Below are positions 28,513 to 41,970 of a stretch of DNA of 64,000 bases, piece after piece. The translations under genes and the position numbers were made by a program. The stretch's first letter is position 1. Each line of letters opens with the position of its first letter. The notes below the pieces were generated by a model. The model was not told the DNA's origin, ran no database searches, and saw only the letters and a list, made by a program, of their open reading frames with translations. The stretch lies in contig NZ_JEMA01000168.1 in the NCBI RefSeq assembly GCF_001589285.1, forward strand, positions 1 through 64,000. Reading direction: 5' to 3'. Source of the DNA: Sorangium cellulosum (GTDB lineage Bacteria; Myxococcota_A; Polyangia; Polyangiales; Polyangiaceae).

Positions 28513-29472
28513 ATGAGGAGCTTGAAAAGGATATGCAGGCGCTCCACACGGGCACGGCGGTCAGCGATCGGGGCGGCCCTGGGGCACCTCGCGTGTCAAG
28601 CGCGGATCGCGTACCGCTGGATGTCATCGTGTGCGCGGCAAGACAATGATTCGGCGGCTTCGGTTCGGTCCCGCTCGCTTCGCTCCCTGATCAGCCTCCT
28701 CGGCGCGCGCCATCGGCGCGAGGAGGCTCCCCGCGGGCCGCGCCGGATCCTCCGGCCCCAGCGCGCGCCGGCGGTCCTGCTCGCGGCGGCGGTGCTCGTC
28801 GGGTGTTGCCTGCTGCTGCTCAGTCCGCCCACCACCGCAGGCCCCGAGGTCACGCTCTATGTTTATGCGGTGACGCCGCTCCGCGCTCGAGCGCTCGAGC
28901 AGAAGATCGAGGACTCGATGCCCGGCGTCGATGTAACGGTGTTCGGTAAGCTGAGCGACTTCAAGACGGCGCTAGAGACCAGCCCGCCGAACGCGGCGCT
29001 CTCGCCGAGGCCGGTCCTGGCTTCGCTCAACCGAGGCGCCGACCTCCAGGGCATGAGGGCGGGGAGCGACGCGGAGCAATACCTCTTGATCTCGACGAGG
29101 GCGTTGACCAGGGAGATGTTCTCGTCGCTGAGGTACGGGATCGTCGACCTGGTCGAGCGAAAGTCGCTCCCTAAGTTCGTCGCCGGGCTCCTCGGCGTGA
29201 GCGTCGCGCCGGAGGTCCAGCGCGTCACGAAGATCGAGGATCTGCTGCAGCTCCTCCAGTTCCAGACGGCCGACGCGGTGCTCCTCCCGGAGCGGTTCCG
29301 CGCTGATTTCGAGTCCAAGAGCAAGATGAGCTTCACCATCCTGAGCCTTTCGACAGCCAAGGTAGGCCTCGTGGCGGTCACGTTCCTGAGCGATCGTCAC
29401 TCCGTCGAGCACGCGATCCGGAGGCTCCCGAAGCACGTGATGGCCGACCTGGGGGTGGACGAATGGAAATGA
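28513..29472 (+). CDS. Membrane-anchored periplasmic-binding-like protein
   Basis: A 319-residue protein if ATG 28513 is used (GGGAGG just upstream). An Arg-rich N-terminus of about 85 residues precedes one hydrophobic segment (AVLLAAAVLVGCCLLLL). The rest, about 215 residues, looks like a type II periplasmic-binding fold similar to PhnD-like proteins: VTLYVYAVTPLRARALEQ, ADAVLLPERFRADF, TAKVGLVAVTF. The unusual long N-terminus raises doubt about the exact start; ATG 28621 is an alternative. It overlaps the next lipoprotein gene and opens the run ending with the TonB receptor, so it probably presents a ligand or senses it for the hybrid kinase. The ligand is unknown. Confidence 0.6.
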   Translation: MRSLKRICRRSTRARRSAIGAALGHLACQARIAYRWMSSCARQDNDSAASVRSRSLRSLISLLGARHRREEAPRGPRRILRPQRAPAVLLAAAVLVGCCLLLLSPPTTAGPEVTLYVYAVTPLRARALEQKIEDSMPGVDVTVFGKLSDFKTALETSPPNAALSPRPVLASLNRGADLQGMRAGSDAEQYLLISTRALTREMFSSLRYGIVDLVERKSLPKFVAGLLGVSVAPEVQRVTKIEDLLQLLQFQTADAVLLPERFRADFESKSKMSFTILSLSTAKVGLVAVTFLSDRHSVEHAIRRLPKHVMADLGVDEWK

Positions 29473-30491
29473 GGTCGACCCGCCGGCGCTCGCTGTGGCG
29501 AGCCTCTGCCCTCGCGGCGCTGATGCTGGCGCTGAGCTGCTCGTCGGGCACGGCGCAGCACGTCGCCGCGGATCCGGCGCCGCCGCCCGAGACGCCGCCC
29601 CCGGACGGGAAGCCCGTCATCTCCATCATCGCTCCCGCGGGCTCCCAGCTCGACGGCATGCTGGAGTCGCTCCGCGTCGAGCTGTCCGACGACTACCGTG
29701 TCACCATCTCTCCGCTGCGCGTCGAGGAGTCGAGCCCCGATCTCGTGGGGCGGATCGTAGCGCGAGATCGCCCGCGGGCGGTGGTGCTGGTCAACAACTC
29801 GACCGTGCTCCTCTACCGCAACTGGGCGCGCGCCACGCCGGCGCCGCCGGTCGCGCTGATCCTCATGGCGTCCTTCGCCGAGGAGCTCCAGCGCACCGTC
29901 CCCAACTCGGTGGCGATCTCCTACGAGGTGCCGGCGGTCACGGCCATGGTGGGGTTGCGCACGCTGGGCCTCGATGTCCGTCGCGTCGGCGTCGTGTACC
30001 GCCAGGGCTTCGCCCGCCATATCGCCCGGCAGGAAGACCTCATGCAGGTGGAGAAGCTGACCTTCGTGAGGCAGGAGCTCTCGAACAAGCCGCACGTCCA
30101 GGACCTCCGCGCCGCGCTCGTGCACCTCCACCGCGCCGAGGTTGACGCGATCTGGCTGCCCAACGACAATGGCCTGCTGAGCCCGAAGTTCCTGACGAAC
30201 GTCTGGCTCCCTTATGTGGGTCGGCTCGACGCGCCTGTGGTCGTGGCCGTGCGCTCGCTCGTCAACGAGCACGCGGAGTTCGGGACGTTCGCGGCCATCC
30301 CCGACACCCAGGCGCTCGCCGTGCAGGCGGCGGATCTCCTCTACGAGCTCGCGGAGGAGGACTGGAAGCTCCGGGCGTCGGACGTCCGGCTGCCCATCTC
30401 CGTGAAGCGCCTGGTCGACGTGCGGCTCGCGCGGCGGTTCGGCCTTGATTCCAGTCAGTTCGGGCAGGTTGACTTTCTGATCGGGCGGTGA
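29463..30491 (+). CDS. ABC-type substrate-binding-like lipoprotein (PF04392-like)
   Basis: A 342-residue lipoprotein: basic N-terminus, hydrophobic core and lipobox ALSC (Cys26), then a Pro-rich linker. The body follows the type I binding fold of the ABC_sub_bind family (PF04392): PVISIIAPAGSQLDGML, PRAVVLVNNSTVLLYRNW, a domain crossover near DVRRVGVVYRQ, and DAIWLPNDNGLLSPKFL. Family members are found beside or fused to sensor kinases as well as transporters. It overlaps the upstream gene; ATG 29469 forms an ATGA with that gene's stop, so either ATG could serve. No permease follows. Likely function: extracytoplasmic ligand sensing (inference). Confidence 0.75.
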   Translation: MEMRSTRRRSLWRASALAALMLALSCSSGTAQHVAADPAPPPETPPPDGKPVISIIAPAGSQLDGMLESLRVELSDDYRVTISPLRVEESSPDLVGRIVARDRPRAVVLVNNSTVLLYRNWARATPAPPVALILMASFAEELQRTVPNSVAISYEVPAVTAMVGLRTLGLDVRRVGVVYRQGFARHIARQEDLMQVEKLTFVRQELSNKPHVQDLRAALVHLHRAEVDAIWLPNDNGLLSPKFLTNVWLPYVGRLDAPVVVAVRSLVNEHAEFGTFAAIPDTQALAVQAADLLYELAEEDWKLRASDVRLPISVKRLVDVRLARRFGLDSSQFGQVDFLIGR

Positions 30492-30517
30492 GCGCGCATC
30501 GCGGGAATGGAGGAGCC

Positions 30518-30661
30518 ATGCAGTTACTCTCTCAACCGGACACATGGTGTCGAAGCTACCGGCGGGCTCGGACCATGGCGCGCCCGGGTGACGGCTCGAC
30601 GCTCCCACCCCCCCGAGGGCGTCGCCTGCGCGGCTCGCTACCCTGGAGGGAGCGCTCATGA
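30518..30661 (+). CDS. Possible 47-residue ORF coupled to the response regulator
   Basis: ATG 30518 is preceded by GGAGGA at good spacing. The frame stays open for 47 codons, Arg/Pro-rich in its second half, and ends in TGA overlapping the start of the receiver gene (ATGA at 30658-30661). The peptide resembles nothing I know. It may act as a leader peptide for translational coupling, or be a chance frame in a G+C-rich spacer. Confidence 0.35.
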   Translation: MQLLSQPDTWCRSYRRARTMARPGDGSTLPPPRGRRLRGSLPWRERS

Positions 30662-31101
30662 TCCGGGTGCTCGTGATCGATGACGACGACATCGCCCGTG
30701 AGGCGATGTGCGCCATCCTGGTCAAGGCTGGTTACTATGTCTTCGAGCTGGCCACGCCCATCGGCGCGACGTCGGTCATCAAGCGCGACGGGATCACGGT
30801 GGTCGCGCTCGACATCAACATGCCGACCATCAACGGCGACAAGCTGGCCAAGCTGCTCCGGGAGAACGCGCAGCTCTCGAACCTGGGGATCATCCTCGTC
30901 TCCGGCTGTGACGTCGAGCAGCTGAGCGCGCTCGGCGAGAAGGTCGGCGCCGACGGTATCGTCTCGAAATCGAAGCTCCACGTCGCCCTGGCGCCGGCCG
31001 TCGAGCGCGCGGCGGCCGCGCGCGCCGCGAAGAGCGTCGCGCCCCACGCCTCAACGTCGTCCCTCCCCGCTCCCCCGTCCTCGGTGAGGCGTCCTCGATA
31101 A
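30658..31101 (+). CDS. Response regulator receiver protein
   Basis: A 147-residue protein. Receiver domain about 1-120: acidic cluster DDDD (8-11), phosphoacceptor Asp52 in VALDINMPTINGDKL, the Ser of ILVSG in the Thr/Ser position and Lys in VSKSKL. The last 30 residues are an Ala/Ser/Pro-rich tail without a fold. GGAGGGAG lies just upstream of ATG 30658. The stop is 2 nt before the hybrid kinase gene, so the pair should work together, the receiver probably taking phosphate from the kinase's Hpt domain or acting as a shuttle. Confidence 0.92.
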   Translation: MIRVLVIDDDDIAREAMCAILVKAGYYVFELATPIGATSVIKRDGITVVALDINMPTINGDKLAKLLRENAQLSNLGIILVSGCDVEQLSALGEKVGADGIVSKSKLHVALAPAVERAAAARAAKSVAPHASTSSLPAPPSSVRRPR

Positions 31102-31103
31102 GC

Positions 31104-33938
31104 ATGGTTACCCCGAACACCAACGGGTCGCTCCGCCTCAAGCTGCTGCGCCTGATCCTGGGCGCGCTGCTGCTCCTCGGCGGCGCGACGCTCCTGTCGA
31201 GCGGCGCGCTCATCTATTCCACGGATCGCGAGGTCCAGGCCAAGCGCGAGGAGGAGCTCCTCGGCAGCCTCGAGGAGAAGGCCCGCCTGCTCGGCTTCAA
31301 CCAGGCGCTGGCGCTGCGCAGCCTGGTGGCGGACAACCTGTTCGGGGACGTCAAGGCGCTCATCTTCCAGACCGTCTCGGAGAACAACGACATCGCCTAT
31401 GGCCTGTTCTTCGACGCGGAGAACCGGGTCTGGGCGGCGAGCGGGCTCGGCCAGGCGGCCGGCCCCAAGGACGCGCCCGCCCTCACGGCGAAGGATCTGC
31501 AGGCCCTCGGGATCAGCACGGAGCACCACCCCCGGTCCGTGCTGAGGCGGCGGCAGAACCCCATGGGCGGCAGCGACATCCTGGAGGTCGCGGCCCCGGT
31601 CGTCACGGAGGGGACCCACGCCGGGACGGTGATCTACGGCATCAGCACGAAGAGCGTCGTCGAGCGCATGGTCCAGGCCCGGGAGCTCGCCAGGAGCCGG
31701 CTCGTCACAACGCTCGGGCTGATCGGGGCGCTGATCCTCGGCAGCGTCGCGGCCAGCTATTTCCTCGTGAAGCGGGTCGCGGTCCACATCACGGAGCCGC
31801 TGTTCGCGCTGCGCTCGGCGGCGGGCGCCATCGCCAACGGGCTCCGCTCGAGCGCGCCGCCGTCCCAGACGACCGGCATCGAGCCGAAGCAGTGGGAGCG
31901 CGTCCAGATCAAGAGCGGCGACGAGCTCGAGCTCCTGGGCGAGGCGTTCAACAGCATGGTCGAGGCGAACGAGCAGGCGTTCGACGAGCTGCGCGTCAAG
32001 ACGGAGCAGGCCCTCGAGGCGTCCCGGCTGAAGAGCGAGTTCCTCGCCAACATGAGCCACGAGATCCGGACCCCCATGAACGGGATCCTCGGGGTCATCC
32101 GGCTCATGCAGAACCAGCCGCTCGACGGCAAGATGCGGCGCTACGTGGAGACCGTCGACGCCTCCGCGAACACGTTGATGGCGATCATCAACGACGTCCT
32201 CGACTTCTCGAAGCTCGAGGCCGGCAAGTACGTGGCGCAGCACGTCTCCTATGATCTGCGCCTCGTCGTCCAGGAGGTCGCGGAGCTGATGGCGAGCCAG
32301 GCGCACGAGAAGGGGCTCGAGCTCGTGTACCGCGTGGAGCGCCGCGTCCCCACCGGCGTCGTGGGCGACCCCGACCGGTTTCGCCAGGTGCTCACCAACC
32401 TGGTCGGCAACGCGATCAAGTTCACCGACCGCGGCGAGGTGCTTGTCGACGTCGCGGCGCCGCAGCAGGACAAGAGCTCTGCGCTCGTCAAGGTCGCCGT
32501 CGTGGACACCGGCCCCGGCATCGCCGCCGACGACCAGAAGAAGCTCTTCGCCGCCTTCACGCAGGTGGACGGCTCGATGGTCCGCAACCACGGCGGCACG
32601 GGCCTGGGGCTCGCCATCAGCAAGCACCTGGTGGAGGTCATGGGCGGCGAGATCGGCATCGACAGCACGCCGGGGCAGGGCAGCCGGTTCTGGTTCACGA
32701 TCAAGGTCGGCGTCACGGCCGGGGGCGAGCAGATCCGCTCCGCCGAGTGGGCGAGCGGGCGGCGCGCGCTGGTGGTCGAGATCAGCAAGAGCTGGCGCGA
32801 TGTCGTCGTGGAGCATTTGGTGGCCTGGGGCTTCGACGCCGAGGCCACGACCTCCGGCAGGGACGCGATCAGCCGGCTGGAGCTCTCGCTGCTCGAGAAG
32901 CGGCCGTTCAGCGCCGCCGTCGTCGGCGTGCAGATGGACGATCTCGATCTCGAGGCCTTCCTCCGCACCATCCAGTCGGTGCCGGGGCTGGAGAGGCTGC
33001 CCGTTGTGGCGCTCTACCACATGGGGTCGAGCGTGGCGCTGACCGGGCTCGAGTCCACCCTTGTCACGCAGCTCCCCAAGCCGCTCCGCGTGTCCGAGCT
33101 CTACAACACGCTGCAGAGCGCGCTCACCGGCGCCAAGATCGCGCCCGTCAGCAAGCCCGGCGTGGAGCCGGGCAAGATCGCGAGCAAGCTCCCCGTGCTG
33201 GTCGTCGATGACAACGAGATCAACCGCTACGTGGCGATGGAGCAGGTGGAGCAGCTCGGCCTGCGCGTGGAGACCGCGTGCAACGGCCTGGAGGCCCTCG
33301 AGTGCATCAAGCAGAAGCGGTACGTCGCCGTCCTCATGGACTGCCAGATGCCGGTCATGGACGGATACACCGCCACGCAGAAGATCCGCGAGTGGGAGCG
33401 CGAGAAGAATCGTCACACGGTGATCATCGCGCTCACGGCGCACGCGCTGGTCGGCGAGCGGGATCGGGTGCTCGCCGCGGGGATGGACGACTACCTGGCC
33501 AAGCCGGTGCGGCCCCAGTCGCTGCAGAAGACCCTGTGGCGGCACGTTGTCCTGCACCGGGACGAGCCGGAGACGGCGCCCGCGCTCACGAGCGGCGCGA
33601 GGGAGCCTGCGTCCCTGCTCGTGCTCGATCCCGAGGTCCCGCGCTCGCGCAAGCTGATCGAGCTCGTCCTCAAGAACGTCCCGCAGCAGCTCGACGGCCT
33701 GGAGGCCTCCCTGCGGGCGTCGGTCGTCGCCGAGGTGAAGGCGAGCGCCCACAAGCTGAAGGGCAGCATGCTCTCGATCGGCGCGTCGCGCGTCGCCGAG
33801 CTGGCGGAGAAGATGCAGTTCGCGGCCGGCCAGGGCGAGCTGCCGGCGACGGGCGATCTGGCGCGGATACGTGAGGAGTTCGCCTCCGTCAGCGTCGCCC
33901 TGAAGGAAGAGCTCGCCGCGACAGCCCAGGCGACGTGA
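31104..33938 (+). CDS. Hybrid sensor histidine kinase with pseudo-receiver, receiver and Hpt
   Basis: A 944-residue membrane kinase. Order: transmembrane helix (about 12-38), periplasmic sensor domain (about 40-197), second helix (about 198-222), HAMP-like linker, HisKA with His319 in NMSHEIRTPMNG, HATPase (DTGPGIA and GGTGLGLAIS motifs), a degenerate receiver (about 545-670) in which the Asp strand reads AVVGVQMDD, a true receiver with Asp746 in LMDCQMPVMDG, and an Hpt domain with His883 in AHKLKG. This is a complete internal phosphorelay, His319 to Asp746 to His883, expected to end on the receiver encoded just upstream. It lies between periplasmic-binding proteins and a TonB receptor, so the input signal may be a bound nutrient. 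Confidence 0.95.
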   Translation: MVTPNTNGSLRLKLLRLILGALLLLGGATLLSSGALIYSTDREVQAKREEELLGSLEEKARLLGFNQALALRSLVADNLFGDVKALIFQTVSENNDIAYGLFFDAENRVWAASGLGQAAGPKDAPALTAKDLQALGISTEHHPRSVLRRRQNPMGGSDILEVAAPVVTEGTHAGTVIYGISTKSVVERMVQARELARSRLVTTLGLIGALILGSVAASYFLVKRVAVHITEPLFALRSAAGAIANGLRSSAPPSQTTGIEPKQWERVQIKSGDELELLGEAFNSMVEANEQAFDELRVKTEQALEASRLKSEFLANMSHEIRTPMNGILGVIRLMQNQPLDGKMRRYVETVDASANTLMAIINDVLDFSKLEAGKYVAQHVSYDLRLVVQEVAELMASQAHEKGLELVYRVERRVPTGVVGDPDRFRQVLTNLVGNAIKFTDRGEVLVDVAAPQQDKSSALVKVAVVDTGPGIAADDQKKLFAAFTQVDGSMVRNHGGTGLGLAISKHLVEVMGGEIGIDSTPGQGSRFWFTIKVGVTAGGEQIRSAEWASGRRALVVEISKSWRDVVVEHLVAWGFDAEATTSGRDAISRLELSLLEKRPFSAAVVGVQMDDLDLEAFLRTIQSVPGLERLPVVALYHMGSSVALTGLESTLVTQLPKPLRVSELYNTLQSALTGAKIAPVSKPGVEPGKIASKLPVLVVDDNEINRYVAMEQVEQLGLRVETACNGLEALECIKQKRYVAVLMDCQMPVMDGYTATQKIREWEREKNRHTVIIALTAHALVGERDRVLAAGMDDYLAKPVRPQSLQKTLWRHVVLHRDEPETAPALTSGAREPASLLVLDPEVPRSRKLIELVLKNVPQQLDGLEASLRASVVAEVKASAHKLKGSMLSIGASRVAELAEKMQFAAGQGELPATGDLARIREEFASVSVALKEELAATAQAT

Positions 33939-33993
33939 CAAGCAAGTGCGCCCACTCTGCCATGGCCCAAGGCTCAGAACGAACCCTACCCGC

Positions 33994-36183
33994 ATGACCT
34001 TTGCCTCGCTCGAAGCCAAGTGGATGGTTGCCCTGGTGATCGCCGCGGCGCCAGGCGTCGCATGGGCTCAGCCGACGGCCGCCACGGCCCCGGGAGCCCC
34101 GAACGCCGCGGGGAAGGAGCAGCGCAACGACGCGCTCGAGGGCGTCGACCTCTTGCGGCTGCTCGACGTCGAGGTGTCCACGGCCTCCAAGACGCTGGAG
34201 ACGCTGGACGACGCGCCGGCGGTCGTGACGGCGATCACGGCAGAGGAGATCCGCCGCTGGGGGTACACGAGCGTCGGCGAGGTGCTCAGGCACGTCGTCG
34301 GGTTCTACTTGATTGACGATCACATCCTGCCGAACGCGGGCGTGCAGGGCATGACCGGCGGGCTGGGGGCCGAGAGCGGCGGGATCAAGGTCATGATCGA
34401 CGGGCGATCGGTGGCCTTCCGGACGACCAGCGGCAACTGGCTGGGAACGGAGCTGATCCCGCTGTCCGCCATCAAGCAGATCGAGGTCGTCCGCGGCCCG
34501 GCGTCGGCGCTCTACGGCGCCGATGCGTTCCTCGGGGTCGTCAACATCATCACCCTCGCGGGGGAGGACATCCCCTTCGCCGACGGCACGGCGCGCTTCG
34601 GCGTGACGGGGAGCAACCTGAGCGGCGGCCTCGACGTGCTGGGGGGGATGTCCACCGACCGCTTCGACATGATGTTGACGGCCGCGGGGGAGCTCGACGA
34701 TCGCGGTGGCCTGATGATGCCTGGCCAGTCGCCGGCCCCGCGGATCCCGACCTACAACACGCGGGGCGCGGAGGCCGAGAACCTCGAGCGCTTCTCGGCG
34801 GTCTTCGGCTCGCGCATCGCGTTCCGCGATCCGGAGCGCGGTCACCACCTCGTGGTCAGCGGCTACTGGTCGCGCTTCCGGCGCGGCGGAGACTTCGCGC
34901 AGTGGGCGCAGCTCACCGGCGGAACGGACACGTTCGGCAGCCCAGCCGGCACCGTGGTCAGCCTGCAGCAACACCGCATCGCGGTCGATGGGCTCTTCCA
35001 GCTCAACCGGGAGCTCGCCATCGCGGTGCAGGGCATGTATTTCCAGGGCGGCGTCCTGCCGGAAGACCGCGTGGACGTCGCCGGCGGCTGGTACTACATC
35101 GAGCGGCGCATGGCCTACCGCGGCGTCGACGCGAACGTCGAGCTCCGGTGGGTCCCCTGGGACCGCTTCAACGTCATCCTCAACCTCGAGTCGGTCTACG
35201 ACAACGAGGATCTGCCCTCCTTCCGTCGGGTCAGCAAGCTCACGGGGCAGGCGTTCGGCTCGCCGGAGCGGGAGCAGCTCTCGACCGAGCTGGTCGACAT
35301 CGGGGCGCTGCTCAGCGCCAACCTCAAGGTGCTCGACCCGTGGCTGAAGCTGACGGGGGGTTTCCGCTACGATAACCACAGCAGGTACGAGAATCAGCTC
35401 ACCGGCCGCTTCGGGGCGACATCGCACCTGGGGAAGAGCGTCGTGGCCAAGCTGCTGTACGGCAGCGCCTTCAAGGCGCCGTCGCCCTACCTGCTGTACG
35501 CCCAGCCGCTCGTGCCGGGCGACGTGATCGGGAACGCGGACCTGAAGCCTCAGTCCATCCACACGGTGGACGCCGAGGTGACGTGGCGGCCGCGCGCCTG
35601 GGCCTCGGCGAGCACGGGGGTGTCTTACAGCCTCCTGAACGACAAGGCGGAGTTCGTCCCGCGGGGCATCAACCAGACGGCCGTGAACGTCGCCAATCAG
35701 ATGTCGCTGATCTGGGCGACGCGCGCCGAGCTGCGGCGCGGCGACGCCTATGGCGGCTACGCGTCGTTCGAGACCGTGCACTCCACCCGGGAATCCGGCC
35801 AGGTGGGCTACCAGGCCGAGCTGGTCGGTCCGGAGATGGTCGCCTACCCGCGCTGGATCGCCCGGGGCGGGGCGTACGTGAAGCTGCCGTCGCCGAGCGC
35901 CGTTCCGCTCGAGCTCTCGACGCAAGCGATCGTCGTCGGGCCCCGGCGCGCCGCCGACGCGAGCATCCTGGAGAACGGCCGCAGCTTCGACCTGCCCACG
36001 TACCTGTGGTGGAACGCCAGCCTGGTCGCGCGCAACCTGTGGGTCATCCCGGGTCACGAGACGACGGTGGCGCTGCGCGCCAAGAACATCCTCGGCGCCA
36101 GCGGGCCGGACCCCGGGTTCTCGGGCTTCGAGTACCCGCTGGCCCCGCGCGAGGTGTTCCTCGAGCTACGACACCGCTACTGA
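33994..36183 (+). CDS. TonB-dependent outer-membrane receptor
   Basis: A 729-residue protein. ATG 33994 gives a signal peptide ending near GVAWA. The plug domain (about 45-170) shows the pattern STASKTLETLDDAPAVVTAI, WGYTSVGEVLRHVVGFY and VRGPASALYGADAFLGVVNI. The rest forms the beta-barrel and ends in an aromatic residue (LRHRY) as needed for outer-membrane insertion. No clear TonB box could be assigned. The subfamily, with the ASK-plug start, often occurs beside PF04392-type binding proteins and sensor kinases. It follows the hybrid kinase by 55 nt and probably imports the ligand sensed by the system; the ligand is unknown. Confidence 0.93.
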   Translation: MTFASLEAKWMVALVIAAAPGVAWAQPTAATAPGAPNAAGKEQRNDALEGVDLLRLLDVEVSTASKTLETLDDAPAVVTAITAEEIRRWGYTSVGEVLRHVVGFYLIDDHILPNAGVQGMTGGLGAESGGIKVMIDGRSVAFRTTSGNWLGTELIPLSAIKQIEVVRGPASALYGADAFLGVVNIITLAGEDIPFADGTARFGVTGSNLSGGLDVLGGMSTDRFDMMLTAAGELDDRGGLMMPGQSPAPRIPTYNTRGAEAENLERFSAVFGSRIAFRDPERGHHLVVSGYWSRFRRGGDFAQWAQLTGGTDTFGSPAGTVVSLQQHRIAVDGLFQLNRELAIAVQGMYFQGGVLPEDRVDVAGGWYYIERRMAYRGVDANVELRWVPWDRFNVILNLESVYDNEDLPSFRRVSKLTGQAFGSPEREQLSTELVDIGALLSANLKVLDPWLKLTGGFRYDNHSRYENQLTGRFGATSHLGKSVVAKLLYGSAFKAPSPYLLYAQPLVPGDVIGNADLKPQSIHTVDAEVTWRPRAWASASTGVSYSLLNDKAEFVPRGINQTAVNVANQMSLIWATRAELRRGDAYGGYASFETVHSTRESGQVGYQAELVGPEMVAYPRWIARGGAYVKLPSPSAVPLELSTQAIVVGPRRAADASILENGRSFDLPTYLWWNASLVARNLWVIPGHETTVALRAKNILGASGPDPGFSGFEYPLAPREVFLELRHRY

Positions 36184-36187
36184 GCGG

Positions 36188-36222
36188 CGCGTATCGAGGC
36201 GAGATACCCTCCTCGATACGCG
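36188..36222. terminator. Bidirectional terminator hairpin after the TonB receptor
   Basis: CGCGTATCGAGG (36188-36199) and CCTCGATACGCG (36211-36222) form a perfect 12-bp stem with an 11-nt loop, 4 nt past the TonB receptor stop and before the end of the convergent binding-protein gene. There is no T-run. Confidence 0.7.
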
Positions 36223-36275: not shown

Positions 36276-37583
36276 CTAGTTCACGCCGGAGCACGCCACG
36301 GCGACGGGGGGAAGATCGACGAAGGCGTGCCCTTGGATCTTCCATCGCTGCATGAAGTGATGGATGCTCGCCCCGTATTCGTCGAACTCGTACTCGGCGG
36401 CCGCCCCGATGTACCGGAGCCGGGTCCCCGCGCGGAGCCTGGCCATCGCCGTGTTCAGCTCCGACCACCTGACAGGCTCGTTCTCCGGGCTGTTGAGATC
36501 GCGAATGATCTTCTGCAGCTCATACCCGGACAGCGGCAGCTCCTTGCCGGTCGCCTGGGCGTACACGAGGCCCATCGCGATGAGGACGGCGCCGTCGTAA
36601 TAGAAGTGCGCTGCGGGCAGCGGCGCCTCGCCGTCCCACCGGCGCGAGAAGTGGTCGATGAAGGCGGCGGCGTTCTCTGTCGAGCAGCCGGCCATCTCCT
36701 CGGATCCGTCCACCACCGGGCACTCGCTGCGCAGGCTGAGCGAGGGCGAGACCCCGATGTATTCGTCGAGGGAGCCTGTCGGGATGTTGGCGAGCAGCAC
36801 CTCGGTGCGCAGCGCGGGACCGAGGAGCCAGGTGCCCGGGCGCCCGGAGACTGTCCACTCGGTCACGATGGTCGAGGCGGTGGCGGGGTACGCCGCCAGG
36901 AGCGTGCGGCCGGCGTGCGACGCGAAGGCGGACTCGATCTTCTTCGTGTACGTGTGCTCGCCCGACGTGAACGTCACCGAGGGGAGGACCCTGCCCCGGA
37001 GCGCCACGAACTGGGTCGTGAACTCGCTCCTGACGCGGGTGTTGTAGTCGTCCCGCGCGGCGAGGCTGTTCACGGTGCCGACGCCCTCGCCGACGGCGAC
37101 CATCGCCAGCGCGCAACCCACGTGGAACGGGGCCGGGGCGAGCCGCATCCAGCCTCCCCTCGTCTCGCTGCGCGCGACCGAGGGCGCGGCGTACCCCGGC
37201 AGCATGTGAAACACGTCGAGCCCCTTCACGTCCGTCGCGATCTCACGGGCGAGCTCGTCCTCCTCGGGCCCGACCAGGTAGGCGATCTTGTCCGCGTACA
37301 GCAGCTGGAGCAGCTGATCGAGCCCACGCGCCGTGCTGGAGTGGCTGTCGCGGCTCCGGAGGTCGAACGGCCTGCCGTCGAGCCCCCCCGCGGCGTTCAG
37401 ATCCTCGATCGCGAGCAACATCGCCTGCTCGAGGTTGCGGCCAACGGCCGACTCGCTGCCGGAGAAGGGCAGGAGGGCCCCGAGGACGACGGCATCCTCG
37501 GGGTGGCCTGGCGCTGCCGGCGAGCAGGACGCCGAGAGCAGGGACGTGAGCCCCAAGAGCAGCCTGGTCTCCATGCGGCGCAT
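36276..37583 (-). CDS. Branched-chain amino-acid-type ABC substrate-binding lipoprotein, copy 1
   Basis: A 435-residue lipoprotein: ATG 37583 gives MRRMETR, a hydrophobic core and lipobox LSASC (Cys20). The body is a type I periplasmic-binding fold of the LivJ/Peripla_BP_6 group: VVLGALLPFSGSESAVGRN, LEQAMLLAIEDLNAAGGLDG, AYLVGPEEDE, and the C-terminal HFYYDGAVLIAMGLVYA. ATG 37574 is an alternative start. It is about 75% identical by eye to the next gene on the same strand, so the two arose by tandem duplication, including an upstream 30-bp element. No permease or ATPase gene is present, suggesting a sensory rather than transport role. Confidence 0.88.
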   Translation of the reverse strand: MRRMETRLLLGLTSLLSASCSPAAPGHPEDAVVLGALLPFSGSESAVGRNLEQAMLLAIEDLNAAGGLDGRPFDLRSRDSHSSTARGLDQLLQLLYADKIAYLVGPEEDELAREIATDVKGLDVFHMLPGYAAPSVARSETRGGWMRLAPAPFHVGCALAMVAVGEGVGTVNSLAARDDYNTRVRSEFTTQFVALRGRVLPSVTFTSGEHTYTKKIESAFASHAGRTLLAAYPATASTIVTEWTVSGRPGTWLLGPALRTEVLLANIPTGSLDEYIGVSPSLSLRSECPVVDGSEEMAGCSTENAAAFIDHFSRRWDGEAPLPAAHFYYDGAVLIAMGLVYAQATGKELPLSGYELQKIIRDLNSPENEPVRWSELNTAMARLRAGTRLRYIGAAAEYEFDEYGASIHHFMQRWKIQGHAFVDLPPVAVACSGVN

Positions 37584-37675
37584 GTGTCGTCCGAGGTGGG
37601 TAAGCCACATGCCGGCTTGATGGAAGCAATGCAAGGCGGCAGGGCCCCCTGAGGTCGATGCTTGACCCTCCAGCC

Positions 37676-37705
37676 GATGACATCGCATCGAGGACCGATC
37701 GTCAA
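37676..37705 (-). promoter_or_regulatory. 30-bp element upstream of binding protein copy 1
   Basis: On the minus strand it begins TTGACGATCGGTCC, so a -35-like TTGACG is included. It matches the element at 39221-39250 in 29 of 30 positions, while the sequence between the element and each gene is poorly conserved. It lies about 90 bp upstream of ATG 37583. Confidence 0.5.
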
Positions 37706-37821
37706 GGGGGACGCACGTCGGTGGAGCGGATCGCTGCGTCGACCACCTGAGCTCCAGCTCCAGCCATGGCGCTGCGCGCCACGCGCGGTACCCCCGCGCG
37801 AAAGTCATGCTGGCAGCGGGC

Positions 37822-39204
37822 TCACTTCCTGGGCTCGCACGTCACCGCGACGGGGGCGACATCGACGAACCTGTCACCGTCGATCGTCCATTTCTGCATG
37901 AAATGGTGCACGCTCGCCCCGTACGCATCGAACTCGTATTCGGCGGCTGCCCCGACATACCGCAGGCGGATCCCCGCGCGGAGCCTCGTCATCGCCGCGT
38001 TCAGATCTCGCCAGGAGGCCGCCTCGTTGCCCTGCTGGTTGAGCTCGCGGATGATCTTCCGCAGCTCATGTCCGGACGAAGGGACCGTGCCGCTCGTGGC
38101 CTGGGCGTACGCGAGGCCCATCGCGATCAGGACGACACCGTCGTAGTAGAAGTGCGCCGCGGGCAGCGGCGCCTCGCCGCCCCACCGGCGCGAGAAGTGG
38201 TCGATGAACGCGGCGGCGTTCCCGGTCGTGCAGCCGAGCGACTCCTCGGCTTCGTCCATGACCTGGCACTCGCTCCGCAGGCTGAGCGAGGGCGAGACCC
38301 CGAGGTACCCGTCGAGGGAGCCTGTCGGGATGTTGGCGAGGAGCACCTCCGTGCGCAGCGCGGGGCCGAGGAGCCAGGTGCCCGGGCTCCCGGAGACCGC
38401 CCATTCGGTCACGATCGTCGAGGCGGTGGCCGGGTTGGCGGCCAGGAGCGTGCGGCCGGCGCGTGAACCGAAGGCCGTCGTGATCTTCTTCGTGTACGTG
38501 TGCTCGCCCGACATGAACGTCACGGAGGGCAGGGGTCTGCCCCCGAGCGCCGCAAACTGGGTGGTGAAGCTGCTGCTGACGCTCGTGTTGTAGTCGTCCC
38601 GCGCGGCGAGGGTGTTCGCTGTGTCGATCTCCTCGCGAACGGCGATCTTCGCCAGCGCGCAGCCGACCTCGAACGAGGAGGGGGCGAGCCGCATCCAGCC
38701 CCCCTTCGCCTCGCTGCGCGCGACCGAGGGCGCGGCGTACCCCGGCAGCATGTGAAACACGTCGAGCCCCTTCACGTCCGTCGCGATCCCACGGGCGATA
38801 TCGTTCTCCTCGGGTCCGATCAGGTAGGCGACACGATCCGTGTAGAGCAGCTCGATGAGCTGTTCGAGCCCGCGCTCCGCGCTCGAGTGGCTGTCGCGGC
38901 TCCGGAGGTGGAACGGCCTCCCGTCGAGCCCGCCCGCGGCGTTCAGGTCGTCGACAGCGAGCAGCATCGCCTGCTCGAGGTTGCGGCCGACGGCCGACTC
39001 GCTGCCAGAGAACGGCAGGAGGGCCCCGAGGACGACGGCGTCCTCGGGGTGATCGGGCGCTGTCTGCGCGCAGGACGTCGAGAGCAGGGACGCGAGCCCC
39101 GCGAGCAACACGGCCTCCCTACAGCCCGTGCGCCGCCCGAGATGCGCGGGACAACTGCCGTTTCGATGGCGGCGATGCGACGCCGCGGGCCTCCTGCAAG
39201 ACAT
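37822..39204 (-). CDS. Branched-chain amino-acid-type ABC substrate-binding lipoprotein, copy 2
   Basis: A 460-residue protein if ATG 39204 is used, paralogous along its full length to the gene at 36276-37583 (shared blocks VVLGALLPFSGSESAVGRN, TDVKGLDVFHMLPGYAAPS, GPALRTEVLLANIPTGSLD). Lipobox LSTSC (Cys45) is preceded by an unusually long Arg-rich n-region of about 30 residues, so the true start may be nearer; GTG 39111 is possible but its AGGGAGG is too close. Differences from copy 1 cluster in the ligand-cleft half and the C-terminus, so ligand specificity may differ. The genes are 238 nt apart and each has its own copy of the 30-bp element. Confidence 0.85.
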   Translation of the reverse strand: MSCRRPAASHRRHRNGSCPAHLGRRTGCREAVLLAGLASLLSTSCAQTAPDHPEDAVVLGALLPFSGSESAVGRNLEQAMLLAVDDLNAAGGLDGRPFHLRSRDSHSSAERGLEQLIELLYTDRVAYLIGPEENDIARGIATDVKGLDVFHMLPGYAAPSVARSEAKGGWMRLAPSSFEVGCALAKIAVREEIDTANTLAARDDYNTSVSSSFTTQFAALGGRPLPSVTFMSGEHTYTKKITTAFGSRAGRTLLAANPATASTIVTEWAVSGSPGTWLLGPALRTEVLLANIPTGSLDGYLGVSPSLSLRSECQVMDEAEESLGCTTGNAAAFIDHFSRRWGGEAPLPAAHFYYDGVVLIAMGLAYAQATSGTVPSSGHELRKIIRELNQQGNEAASWRDLNAAMTRLRAGIRLRYVGAAAEYEFDAYGASVHHFMQKWTIDGDRFVDVAPVAVTCEPRK

Positions 39205-39220
39205 CTTTGATCCCAGCGCG

Positions 39221-39250
39221 GATGACATCCCATCGAGGACCGATCGTCAA
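39221..39250 (-). promoter_or_regulatory. 30-bp element upstream of binding protein copy 2
   Basis: Differs by one base from 37676-37705. Here it ends only about 17 bp before ATG 39204, a shorter distance than for copy 1, which argues either for a later start codon or for a leader deletion. Confidence 0.5.
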
Positions 39251-39400: not shown

Positions 39401-39784
39401 TCAGCGCCCCGGCGCCCCGCAGATCCGGTGGACCAGATCGAGCAGCGGCTCGATCTGGAGCGGCTTCTTCAGCAGGCCCGCGACGCGGAGCCGCGACGCC
39501 TCCTGCTCGGCCCGCACGTCGGCGGACACGATCACCACCGGGATCGACGAGAGCGCCGGGTCGCGCTGGAGCTCGGCCCGGAGCTGCCAGCCATCCATGA
39601 CCGGCATCATCAGGTCGAGCAGGATCAGCGCGGGCGGCTTGTCGCGCCGCAGCAGCGCGAGCGCCTCGGCGCCGTCCGCCGCCTCCTCGACATCGTAGCC
39701 CTCGAACACGAGGAGCTGCGACAGGATGCTCCTGATGTCCAGATCGTCCTCGACGACCAGGATGCGACCCGTTTTCTCACCCAT
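39401..39784 (-). CDS. Single-domain response regulator
   Basis: A 127-residue receiver: acidic pair EDD (Asp13, Asp14), phosphoacceptor Asp57 in LLDLMMPVMDGWQL, Ser in VVIVSAD and the conserved Lys in LLKKPLQ. It has no output domain. It is 230 nt downstream of the PAS histidine kinase gene on the same strand and is the likely partner of that kinase. It closely resembles the receiver at 22830-23174, especially around the phosphorylation site, so cross-talk between the two is conceivable. Confidence 0.92.
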   Translation of the reverse strand: MGEKTGRILVVEDDLDIRSILSQLLVFEGYDVEEAADGAEALALLRRDKPPALILLDLMMPVMDGWQLRAELQRDPALSSIPVVIVSADVRAEQEASRLRVAGLLKKPLQIEPLLDLVHRICGAPGR

Positions 39785-40014
39785 GCTCGAACCTCACGAC
39801 CGACCGCGCCGCGCGGCGCGCTCCCTCCCGCTGATCCGCGGCCCCGCTGAACTGCCCCCGCTCTCGGCCCTGATCGATCGAGCGTCACGGGCCCGTGCGG
39901 CACCTTGGGCGCGCGCAGCCGCGCGCGCAAGCGGCCGGTCCGCCGGCCCGCCCGGACGCCGGCGGCGGAGGGGGCGGCCGGCCCGCGCCTGTCCGCCTGG
40001 GGCGGGCGCCACGC

Positions 40015-41970
40015 CTACTGCGCGGCCTCCTCGGGGTACTCGTCGAGCGGGTCGCCCGGCGCTCCCTCGCGCTCGTCCGCGGCGCCGGCGCCCTCGCGCC
40101 AGACGGGCAGGAGCACGCGGAAGCACGCGCCGCGGCCCACCTCGCTCTCGACCCCGATCTCGCCCCCGAAGCTCGCCACGATGCCGTGGCAGATCGCCAG
40201 GCCGAGCCCCGTCCCCTCGCCGATGGGCTTCGTCGTGAAGAACGGGTCGAAGATGCGGCGCCGGAGCTCCGGCGCGATCCCCGGCCCTGTGTCGCGCACC
40301 TCGATGCGCACGCGGCCGGGCGGCGCGGCGGCGGTGGTGATCCGGATCTCGTTCTCGCCCTCGTTCCCGTCCGGCAGCGCCTGGGCGGCGTTCACGAGCA
40401 GGTTCAGGATCACCTGGCCGAGCTGCGCCTCGTTCGCGTGGACGGGCGGCACCGGGCCGAGCTCCAGGACGAGCCGCGCCTTGCTGCGGATCTGCTGCTG
40501 CGCCATGCGCAGGACGAGCTGGATCACGCGGTCGACCTCCACCGGGCCGAGCGCGCCGTCGTCCGCGCGCGAGAACGTCTTCAGGCCGCTCACGATGTGC
40601 CGGACCCGCGCCCCGCCCTCCGCTGCCTCGTCGAGCGCCGCGATGAGCGCGTCGGCGCGCGCGGCGGCGCCCCTGGCGCGGAGCTCCTTGCGCGCGAAAT
40701 CGACGTTCGTGACCATGTACGCGAGGGGGTTGTTGATCTCGTGCGCCACCCCGGCGGCGAGCGTGCCGAGCGACGCCATGCGATCGGCGAGCAAGAGCCG
40801 CGTCTCCATCTGCCGGCGCTCGGTGACGTCGGAAACGGCCCCGAGCATCCGGTACGCCTTGCCGGCCCCGTCGCGCAGGACGATGCCCCGGTCCTGGACG
40901 TCGGCGTAGCTGCCGTCCGCGAGCAGGCACCGGTACCAGAGCTCGAACGTGCTCGCCTTGCCCTCGATCGCGCGCCGCAGCGCGTTCATCACGCGGTCGC
41001 GGTCCTCGGGGTGGACGCGCTCGAACCACCACGCCGCGTCCTCCTCGATGTCGGCGCCGCCCGTGCCGTAGAAGCTCCGCATGCGCTCGCTCCCGGTGAC
41101 GCGCCCCGACGAGAGATCCCAGTCCCAGAAGGCGTCGCTCGTCGCGCGCACAACGAGCCGCAGGCGCTCCTCGCTCGCGCGGAGCGCGCCCTCCGCGGCC
41201 CGGCGCGCCGTCAAGTCGAGGACGAAGCAGACGCCGCGATCCCGGGCCCCCTCGACAAGGGCGGGGGCGATGAGGACGGGCAGGCGCCGGCCGTCGCGGT
41301 GGAGGAACTCCTTCTCGAACGGCGGGCAGATGCCGTGCTTCCGGACCTCCGAGAGCGCGCGCTCGTCCGCGGCGCGGAGCTCGGGCGGCGTCAGCGCAAC
41401 CCAGTTCAGCCGGCCCGCCTCGACGTCCTCGCGCGCGCGGCCGACCATGCGGAGGAACGCGTCGTTCGCGTCGAGGATGCGCCCCGCGACGTCCCAGACG
41501 AAGAGGCCGATCACCTCCGCGGATCCGTCGCGGAACGAGCGCCCGGCGCGCTCGAGCAGCGCGCGCTCCGCGGGCGCCCTGTCGGCCGCGCGCGCGGCCG
41601 GCCGCCGCACCCACCACGACGCCGCGTCGAGCTGGATCGCGATCGACAGCTCGTCCGCCGCCGCCACGACCGTGGCGCCCGCCTCGAGCAGGGCCACTGT
41701 CGCGGCCGCGTCCCCGGCGATGGCGACAACGGCCACGCGATCGCCCCCCGGGGCCGCGCGCAGCCGCCGGCACAGCGCCAGCGCCTCGCCGAGCGGCCCG
41801 TCGGCCCCGACGACGGCCACGTCGAACGGCTGGGTCGCCAGGAGGTCCAGCCCGGCCTCGACGTCCCGCGCCGGGACCGCGGCGTGGCCGCGCGCCGCGG
41901 CGGCCGCCAGCGCAGCGTCCGCCGAGCCGCCGGGGAAGACCAAGATCCTGGGCCGATGTGATCCCGCCAC
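40015..41970 (-). CDS. Cytosolic PAS-PAS sensor histidine kinase with N-terminal pseudo-receiver
   Basis: A 651-residue protein without membrane helices. Residues 1-115 have the alternating strand/helix pattern of a receiver (PRILVFPGG, PFDVAVVGADGPLGEALAL), but the first acidic pair is absent (FPGG), so it is probably not phosphorylated normally. PAS domain 1 spans about 140-265, PAS domain 2 about 270-390 (YGTGGADIEEDAAWWFERVH), then HisKA with His410 in AAGVAHEINNPL and HATPase (DTGPGIA, GEGTGLGLAI). The start is GTG 41970. It is expected to phosphorylate the receiver encoded downstream at 39784. The input is probably intracellular, through a PAS ligand or redox state. Confidence 0.93.
   Translation of the reverse strand: MAGSHRPRILVFPGGSADAALAAAAARGHAAVPARDVEAGLDLLATQPFDVAVVGADGPLGEALALCRRLRAAPGGDRVAVVAIAGDAAATVALLEAGATVVAAADELSIAIQLDAASWWVRRPAARAADRAPAERALLERAGRSFRDGSAEVIGLFVWDVAGRILDANDAFLRMVGRAREDVEAGRLNWVALTPPELRAADERALSEVRKHGICPPFEKEFLHRDGRRLPVLIAPALVEGARDRGVCFVLDLTARRAAEGALRASEERLRLVVRATSDAFWDWDLSSGRVTGSERMRSFYGTGGADIEEDAAWWFERVHPEDRDRVMNALRRAIEGKASTFELWYRCLLADGSYADVQDRGIVLRDGAGKAYRMLGAVSDVTERRQMETRLLLADRMASLGTLAAGVAHEINNPLAYMVTNVDFARKELRARGAAARADALIAALDEAAEGGARVRHIVSGLKTFSRADDGALGPVEVDRVIQLVLRMAQQQIRSKARLVLELGPVPPVHANEAQLGQVILNLLVNAAQALPDGNEGENEIRITTAAAPPGRVRIEVRDTGPGIAPELRRRIFDPFFTTKPIGEGTGLGLAICHGIVASFGGEIGVESEVGRGACFRVLLPVWREGAGAADEREGAPGDPLDEYPEEAAQ

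What the first reader, a model, noticed from the sequence alone, without database searches (positions are those of the whole stretch)
36276..39250. Tandem-duplicated binding lipoproteins sharing a nearly identical 30-bp upstream element
The two proteins diverge to about 75% identity, and the 5' leader between the element and the genes has diverged even more, yet the 30-bp element (37676-37705 and 39221-39250) differs at one base only. That points to selection on a promoter or regulator site with TTGACG at one end.
Basis: seen in the sequence. Interest (0 to 1): 0.6.

Follow-up and report, generated by a model that had tools for sequence, protein, structure and literature searches.

The report
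Conserved promoter of duplicated binding-protein genes
Two neighbouring genes for surface ligand-binding proteins in a Sorangium bacterium keep almost the same short on-switch (a promoter), and 27 related sites beside relatives of these genes or of their usual partner gene, in this and five other Sorangium genomes, keep it too; this is a well-supported but ordinary kind of gene-control element.

Summary
The 30-mers at 37676-37705 and 39221-39250 (minus strand) differ at one base, lie just upstream of two tandem LivK-like (Peripla_BP_6) lipoprotein genes of about 76% identity, and occur nowhere else in the 11.9-Mb genome within 3 mismatches. The A/B pair alone is weak evidence, because ten coding blocks are equally alike. 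Outside evidence decides it. All 12 other close Sorangium homologues carry a related element. A model built without the window copies recovers both and, at E<0.01 in the own genome, only one further site, before a third paralogue. Conservation runs from CTTGACA to the last T of a hexamer 18 bases on: the extent of a core promoter. The window copies share a 1-bp deletion (TTGACAG to TTGACG). The element belongs to a two-gene cassette (Peripla_BP_6, then Peripla_BP_4 lipoprotein) and persists at 15 further loci without an intact first gene, nine of them with clear scraps of it. The "leader" is mostly signal-peptide coding: the usual ATG lies 12-19 nt past the -10, predicting a nearly leaderless mRNA; copy B has lost that ATG. 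Best reading: a sigma-70-type promoter carried with an expanding gene family. No regulator site beyond the core promoter is shown.

The parts
39221..39250 (-). Promoter element of copy A: -35 TTGACG 39245-39250, -10 slot TGTCAT 39222-39227, spacer 17
37822..39204 (-). Copy A, Peripla_BP_6 lipoprotein, 460 aa from the conserved ATG at 39204 (17 nt after the -10 slot)
   Evidence: predicted type I binding-protein fold
37676..37705 (-). Promoter element of copy B: -35 TTGACG 37700-37705, -10 slot TGTCAT 37677-37682, spacer 17
36276..37610 (-). Copy B, Peripla_BP_6 lipoprotein; start at ATG 37610 (28 aa before the Cys) or 37583 (19 aa)
37657..37659 (-). ATC in copy B where the other copies have the conserved ATG; the frame is shifted here too
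37706..37821 (-). Spacer between A and the promoter of B; its start weakly resembles the spacer that precedes the second cassette gene elsewhere
   Evidence: 44 nt, 77%, E=4e-4 in a very small database

Best explanation
The 30-mer is the core promoter of a LivK-like lipoprotein gene: a sigma-70/SigA-type -35 (family form CTTGACAG, here TTGACG after a 1-bp deletion), a 17-bp spacer (18 in nearly all other copies) and a -10 at the TGTCAT slot. RNA polymerase should start about 7 nt further on, giving a 5' UTR of only about 5-12 nt before the usual ATG. The promoter travels with its genes: the usual unit is promoter, Peripla_BP_6 lipoprotein, Peripla_BP_4 lipoprotein, multiplied and scattered in Sorangium. 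The window locus most likely arose by tandem duplication after the -35 deletion and has lost the second gene. Shown: the conservation, its extent, its attachment to this family and to derived loci, the shared deletion. Inferred: promoter function, sigma factor, start point, order of events.
For: Related element at 14/14 close copies; in 13 aligned copies column identity is 1.00 over TTGACA, 0.64 spacer, 0.78 -10 slot, against 0.28-0.34 in the flanks and 0.26 by chance. Held-out model: window copies at E=2.8e-5 and 5.7e-4, and in the own genome only the third paralogue besides at E<0.01. 15 derived loci keep the element, nine with scraps of the first gene at E<=2e-6. Six derived loci have TANNNN in the -10 slot, which supports the register. 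First ATG 12-19 nt after the slot in 13 of 14 copies, 12 of these in frame. M. xanthus P_B, a SigA promoter tested in vitro, has TTGACA and TACCTC (PMC8156234).
Against: The -10 slot is poor: TGTCAT lacks the A that sigma-70 normally needs at its second position, and a plain consensus scan finds no promoter here. The -10-proximal half of the spacer (TCGATGnGATG) is more conserved than a plain promoter requires. No transcript data. Part of the similarity is common descent.
Confidence: 0.8

Rival explanations
1. Core promoter plus a binding site for a family-specific regulator overlapping the -10-proximal spacer (TCGATGnGATGTCATC), perhaps served by the neighbouring two-component genes.
For: Spacer columns C16, G20 and G22 are invariant in 13 copies; the weak -10 would suit an activated promoter; kinase and response-regulator genes lie next to the window copies and to several others.
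Against: Derived loci with TANNNN or TCNNNT slots do not keep this half-spacer; the GATGTCATC palindrome is absent from copies with TGGCGT, TGGCCT, TGACGT or TGCAGT; several copies do not have the kinase genes beside them.
Confidence: 0.15
2. The 30-mer is alike only because of recent duplication or gene conversion between A and B, without selection.
For: A and B alone of 29 share the -35 deletion; they pair in the tree (91/94).
Against: The element is conserved in other genomes while the flanks are near random. A 31-bp tract with flanks at 40-68% would be very short for conversion.
Confidence: 0.04
3. The element is conserved because it is translated.
For: ORFs can be drawn through or into the element in both window copies.
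Against: In at least eight copies a stop codon, mostly the TGA of TTGAC, closes the mature-protein frame inside the element. Conservation stops at the end of the -10 slot, and the element persists where the first gene is gone.
Confidence: 0.01

Closest known systems
Sigma-70/SigA-type promoters of myxobacteria, e.g. M. xanthus P_B of carB (TTGACA, TACCTC; PMC8156234)
   Same: Near-consensus TTGACA -35 with a degenerate -10
   Different: No start mapped here; -10 slot mostly TGNCNT; 18-bp spacer in nearly all copies; half of the spacer conserved as well
LivK/LivJ-type (Peripla_BP_6) binding proteins, e.g. 3td9
   Same: Pfam match and predicted fold
   Different: About 16% identity; lipoprotein with a long signal peptide; no importer genes recognised nearby; ligand unknown
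Paralogous gene families of Sorangium cellulosum So0157-2 (PMC3696898)
   Same: Same genus; massive duplication reported there; G005 has exactly the size of So0157-2 (14,782,125 bp)
   Different: The passages read do not mention this cassette or its promoter

Membership tests
Sigma-70-type (SigA) promoter | -35 close to TTGACA | tested here: met
   TTGACA in 26 of 29 copies; TTGACG in both window copies, TTGACT in one
Sigma-70-type (SigA) promoter | -10 close to TATAAT at 16-18 bp, with A at position 2 | tested here: inconclusive
   Spacing met (17-18). T at position 1 in 29/29, T at position 6 in 24/29, but A at position 2 only in six derived loci; window copies TGTCAT
Sigma-70-type (SigA) promoter | Transcription starts about 7 nt after the -10 and depends on the sigma factor | not testable with these tools
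   Only the ATG position, 12-19 nt after the slot in 13 of 14 copies, is known
Peripla_BP_6 (LivK-like) binding protein | Profile match and bilobed type I fold | tested here: met
   72 and 78 bits against a cut-off of 31.7; model pLDDT 80, best match 3td9
Bacterial lipoprotein | Signal peptide ending in a lipobox Cys | tested here: met
   LLSTS-C in A, LLSAS-C in B, Cys at this site in all 14 close copies; processing itself not tested
Branched-chain amino-acid ABC importer component | Permease and ATPase genes alongside | tested here: not met
   Neighbours tested by profile are kinases, response regulators and a TonB receptor; none of the nearby window ORFs tested is a permease or ATPase

The most novel reading that the evidence does not exclude
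The -10-proximal spacer carries the site of a family-specific activator that switches the scattered binding-protein cassettes together, so that a multi-copy set of surface receptors forms one regulon whose promoter is kept even after the first gene is lost.
Probability: 0.12. Interest if true: 0.45.

Novelty: new member of a known kind. Interest (0 to 1): 0.3.

Why it matters
It gives 29 aligned natural variants of one Sorangium promoter, most with a start codon close by, that could help to calibrate promoter and start-codon prediction in a group for which I found no promoter consensus. It also shows a gene cassette that spreads with its promoter, the promoter outliving the first gene at many loci. 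The element itself is an ordinary promoter.

Tried and rejected
Genome-wide TTGACA-N17-19-TGTCAT: one unrelated-looking hit, not followed up. Counts of CTTGACA with TANNNT (13) or TGNCNT (6) against 0 reversed controls: too few to settle the general Sorangium -10. Gibbs search for an upstream operator: 14.9 bits against 12.2-12.3 in three shuffles, but the sequences are related and the positions scatter, so not claimed; a 9-bp inverted repeat seen in G004_c was not pursued. Terminator scan: nothing useful. The first promoter alignment (A1) misplaced the window copies and was replaced by A2. The promoter model does not match the more distant family homologues L046-L050 or G001_a's locus L040. 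Literature: no paper found on this family or on a Sorangium promoter consensus; passages read in PMC5442856 and PMC8579030 give none.

Full report
Observation. They precede two tandem Peripla_BP_6 lipoprotein genes, 76% identical. Aligned end to end, A and B are 80% identical at the DNA level. The element stands out from its flanks (40-68% per 50 bp), but ten coding blocks are as similar, up to 93 bp with 2 mismatches. The pair alone is therefore weak evidence for selection.

Homologues. The genome belongs to Sorangium: a genome ranked in the same genus holds the contig titled Sorangium sp., and another has exactly the 14,782,125 bp of So0157-2 (PMC3696898). Six Sorangium genomes hold 14 close copies, the others being 66-79% identical to A. 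A related element lies upstream of every one. Thirteen align closely; G001_a has the -35 but a different spacer and -10 slot. In the 13, mean column identity is 1.00 over TTGACA, 0.64 over the spacer and 0.78 over the -10 slot, and 0.34 just after it, against 0.34 and 0.28 further upstream and 0.26 expected at random. The block runs from CTTGAC to the last T of the slot: the extent of a core promoter.

Specificity. A sequence model of 11 copies, with the window copies left out, finds them at E=2.8e-5 and 5.7e-4; at E<0.01 the only other site in the own genome is a training copy, before the third paralogue on contig C464. The search scored 150 of 17,319 first-look candidates, so weaker sites may be missed. 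In the five relatives the hits at E<0.002 are the ten training copies and four loci where the first gene is deleted or decayed; a fifth such locus has E=0.04.

The cassette. In twelve of the loci read, the first gene is followed by a gene for a second lipoprotein, Peripla_BP_4, which is split or shortened in two. Searching for that second gene gave copies without an intact first gene; ten of them have a TTGACA element upstream and two others (G004 1.502 and 6.73 Mb) do not. With the five loci above, 15 derived loci carry the element. After the element, nine of them still hold DNA matching the first gene at E<=2e-6; a tenth match (L074, 39 nt, E=0.005) could be chance, and five show none. These ten solo sites were located by looking for TTGAC upstream, so they are less independent than the model hits; nine of the ten scored above the 99% level of random 730-bp sequence or just at it (8.6 against 8.7 for C394), while G004 1.5036 was seen by eye only. 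Six have TA at the start of the -10 slot, which supports the register; G001_a and two derived loci have TCNNNT. M. xanthus P_B, a SigA promoter tested in vitro, has TTGACA and TACCTC (PMC8156234).

The window locus. Both window copies, alone among the 29, read TTGACG with spacer 17; one other copy (G004 1.5036) has TTGACA with 17, the rest 18. This fits duplication after a 1-bp deletion. The protein tree pairs A and B at 91/94, below the tool's strong mark. Sensor kinase, response regulator, binding protein, TonB receptor and hybrid kinase lie in the same order in G005_b, where the second cassette gene is present. No Peripla_BP_4 gene is recognisable in the window, while DNA after A and after B weakly resembles the spacer before it elsewhere (E=4e-4 and 9e-5 in a very small database). 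Loss of the second gene is likely but inferred.

Start codons. In 13 of 14 copies the first ATG is 12-19 nt after the -10 slot; in 12 of these it is in frame with the lipobox Cys, in nine at exactly 132 nt. In G001_b it is out of frame. In copy B the codon reads ATC and the frame is shifted, leaving ATG 37610 or 37583. The 'diverged leader' is thus mostly signal-peptide n-region. A against B gives dN 0.139, dS 0.289 (NG86) or 0.115, 0.963 (YN00): purifying selection, though the methods disagree on dS.

The proteins. Copy A is predicted as a type I binding protein (pLDDT 80; residues 1-51 under 50), closest to LivK 3td9. The ligand is unknown. No importer genes were recognised nearby, so capture or sensing of a solute is inference.

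Verdict. A core promoter, well supported by comparison and ordinary in kind, attached to an expanded lipoprotein cassette. Open: the sigma factor, the meaning of the conserved half-spacer, and whether expression is regulated.

Noticed in passing
36189-36221: A perfect inverted repeat of about 11 bp (gcgtatcgagg / cctcgatacgc) lies between the convergent ends of copy B and the TonB-receptor gene; perhaps a shared terminator, without a T run.
   Followed up: no
29463-36183 and 39401-41970: The binding proteins sit between two signalling gene groups: a response regulator, hybrid kinase and TonB receptor on one side, a PAS kinase (best NCBIfam hits EspA/EspC, below cut-off) and response regulator on the other. 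Most of this order recurs in L042.
   Followed up: partly
L041 (G001_b), downstream of the binding-protein gene: A short internally deleted piece of the second cassette gene follows the intact first gene, the reverse of the loci that kept only the second gene.
   Followed up: no
L035 (own contig C464): The own genome's third copy groups with G005_b (100/100), yet G005_b lies in the gene order of the window locus; the paralogues seem to have been exchanged between sites.
   Followed up: no
upstream of the element in L035, L034, L036, L042, L072, L074: A stretch like CTCACCTCTCGGCCTGA recurs about 115-160 bp upstream of the -35 in several copies.
   Followed up: no
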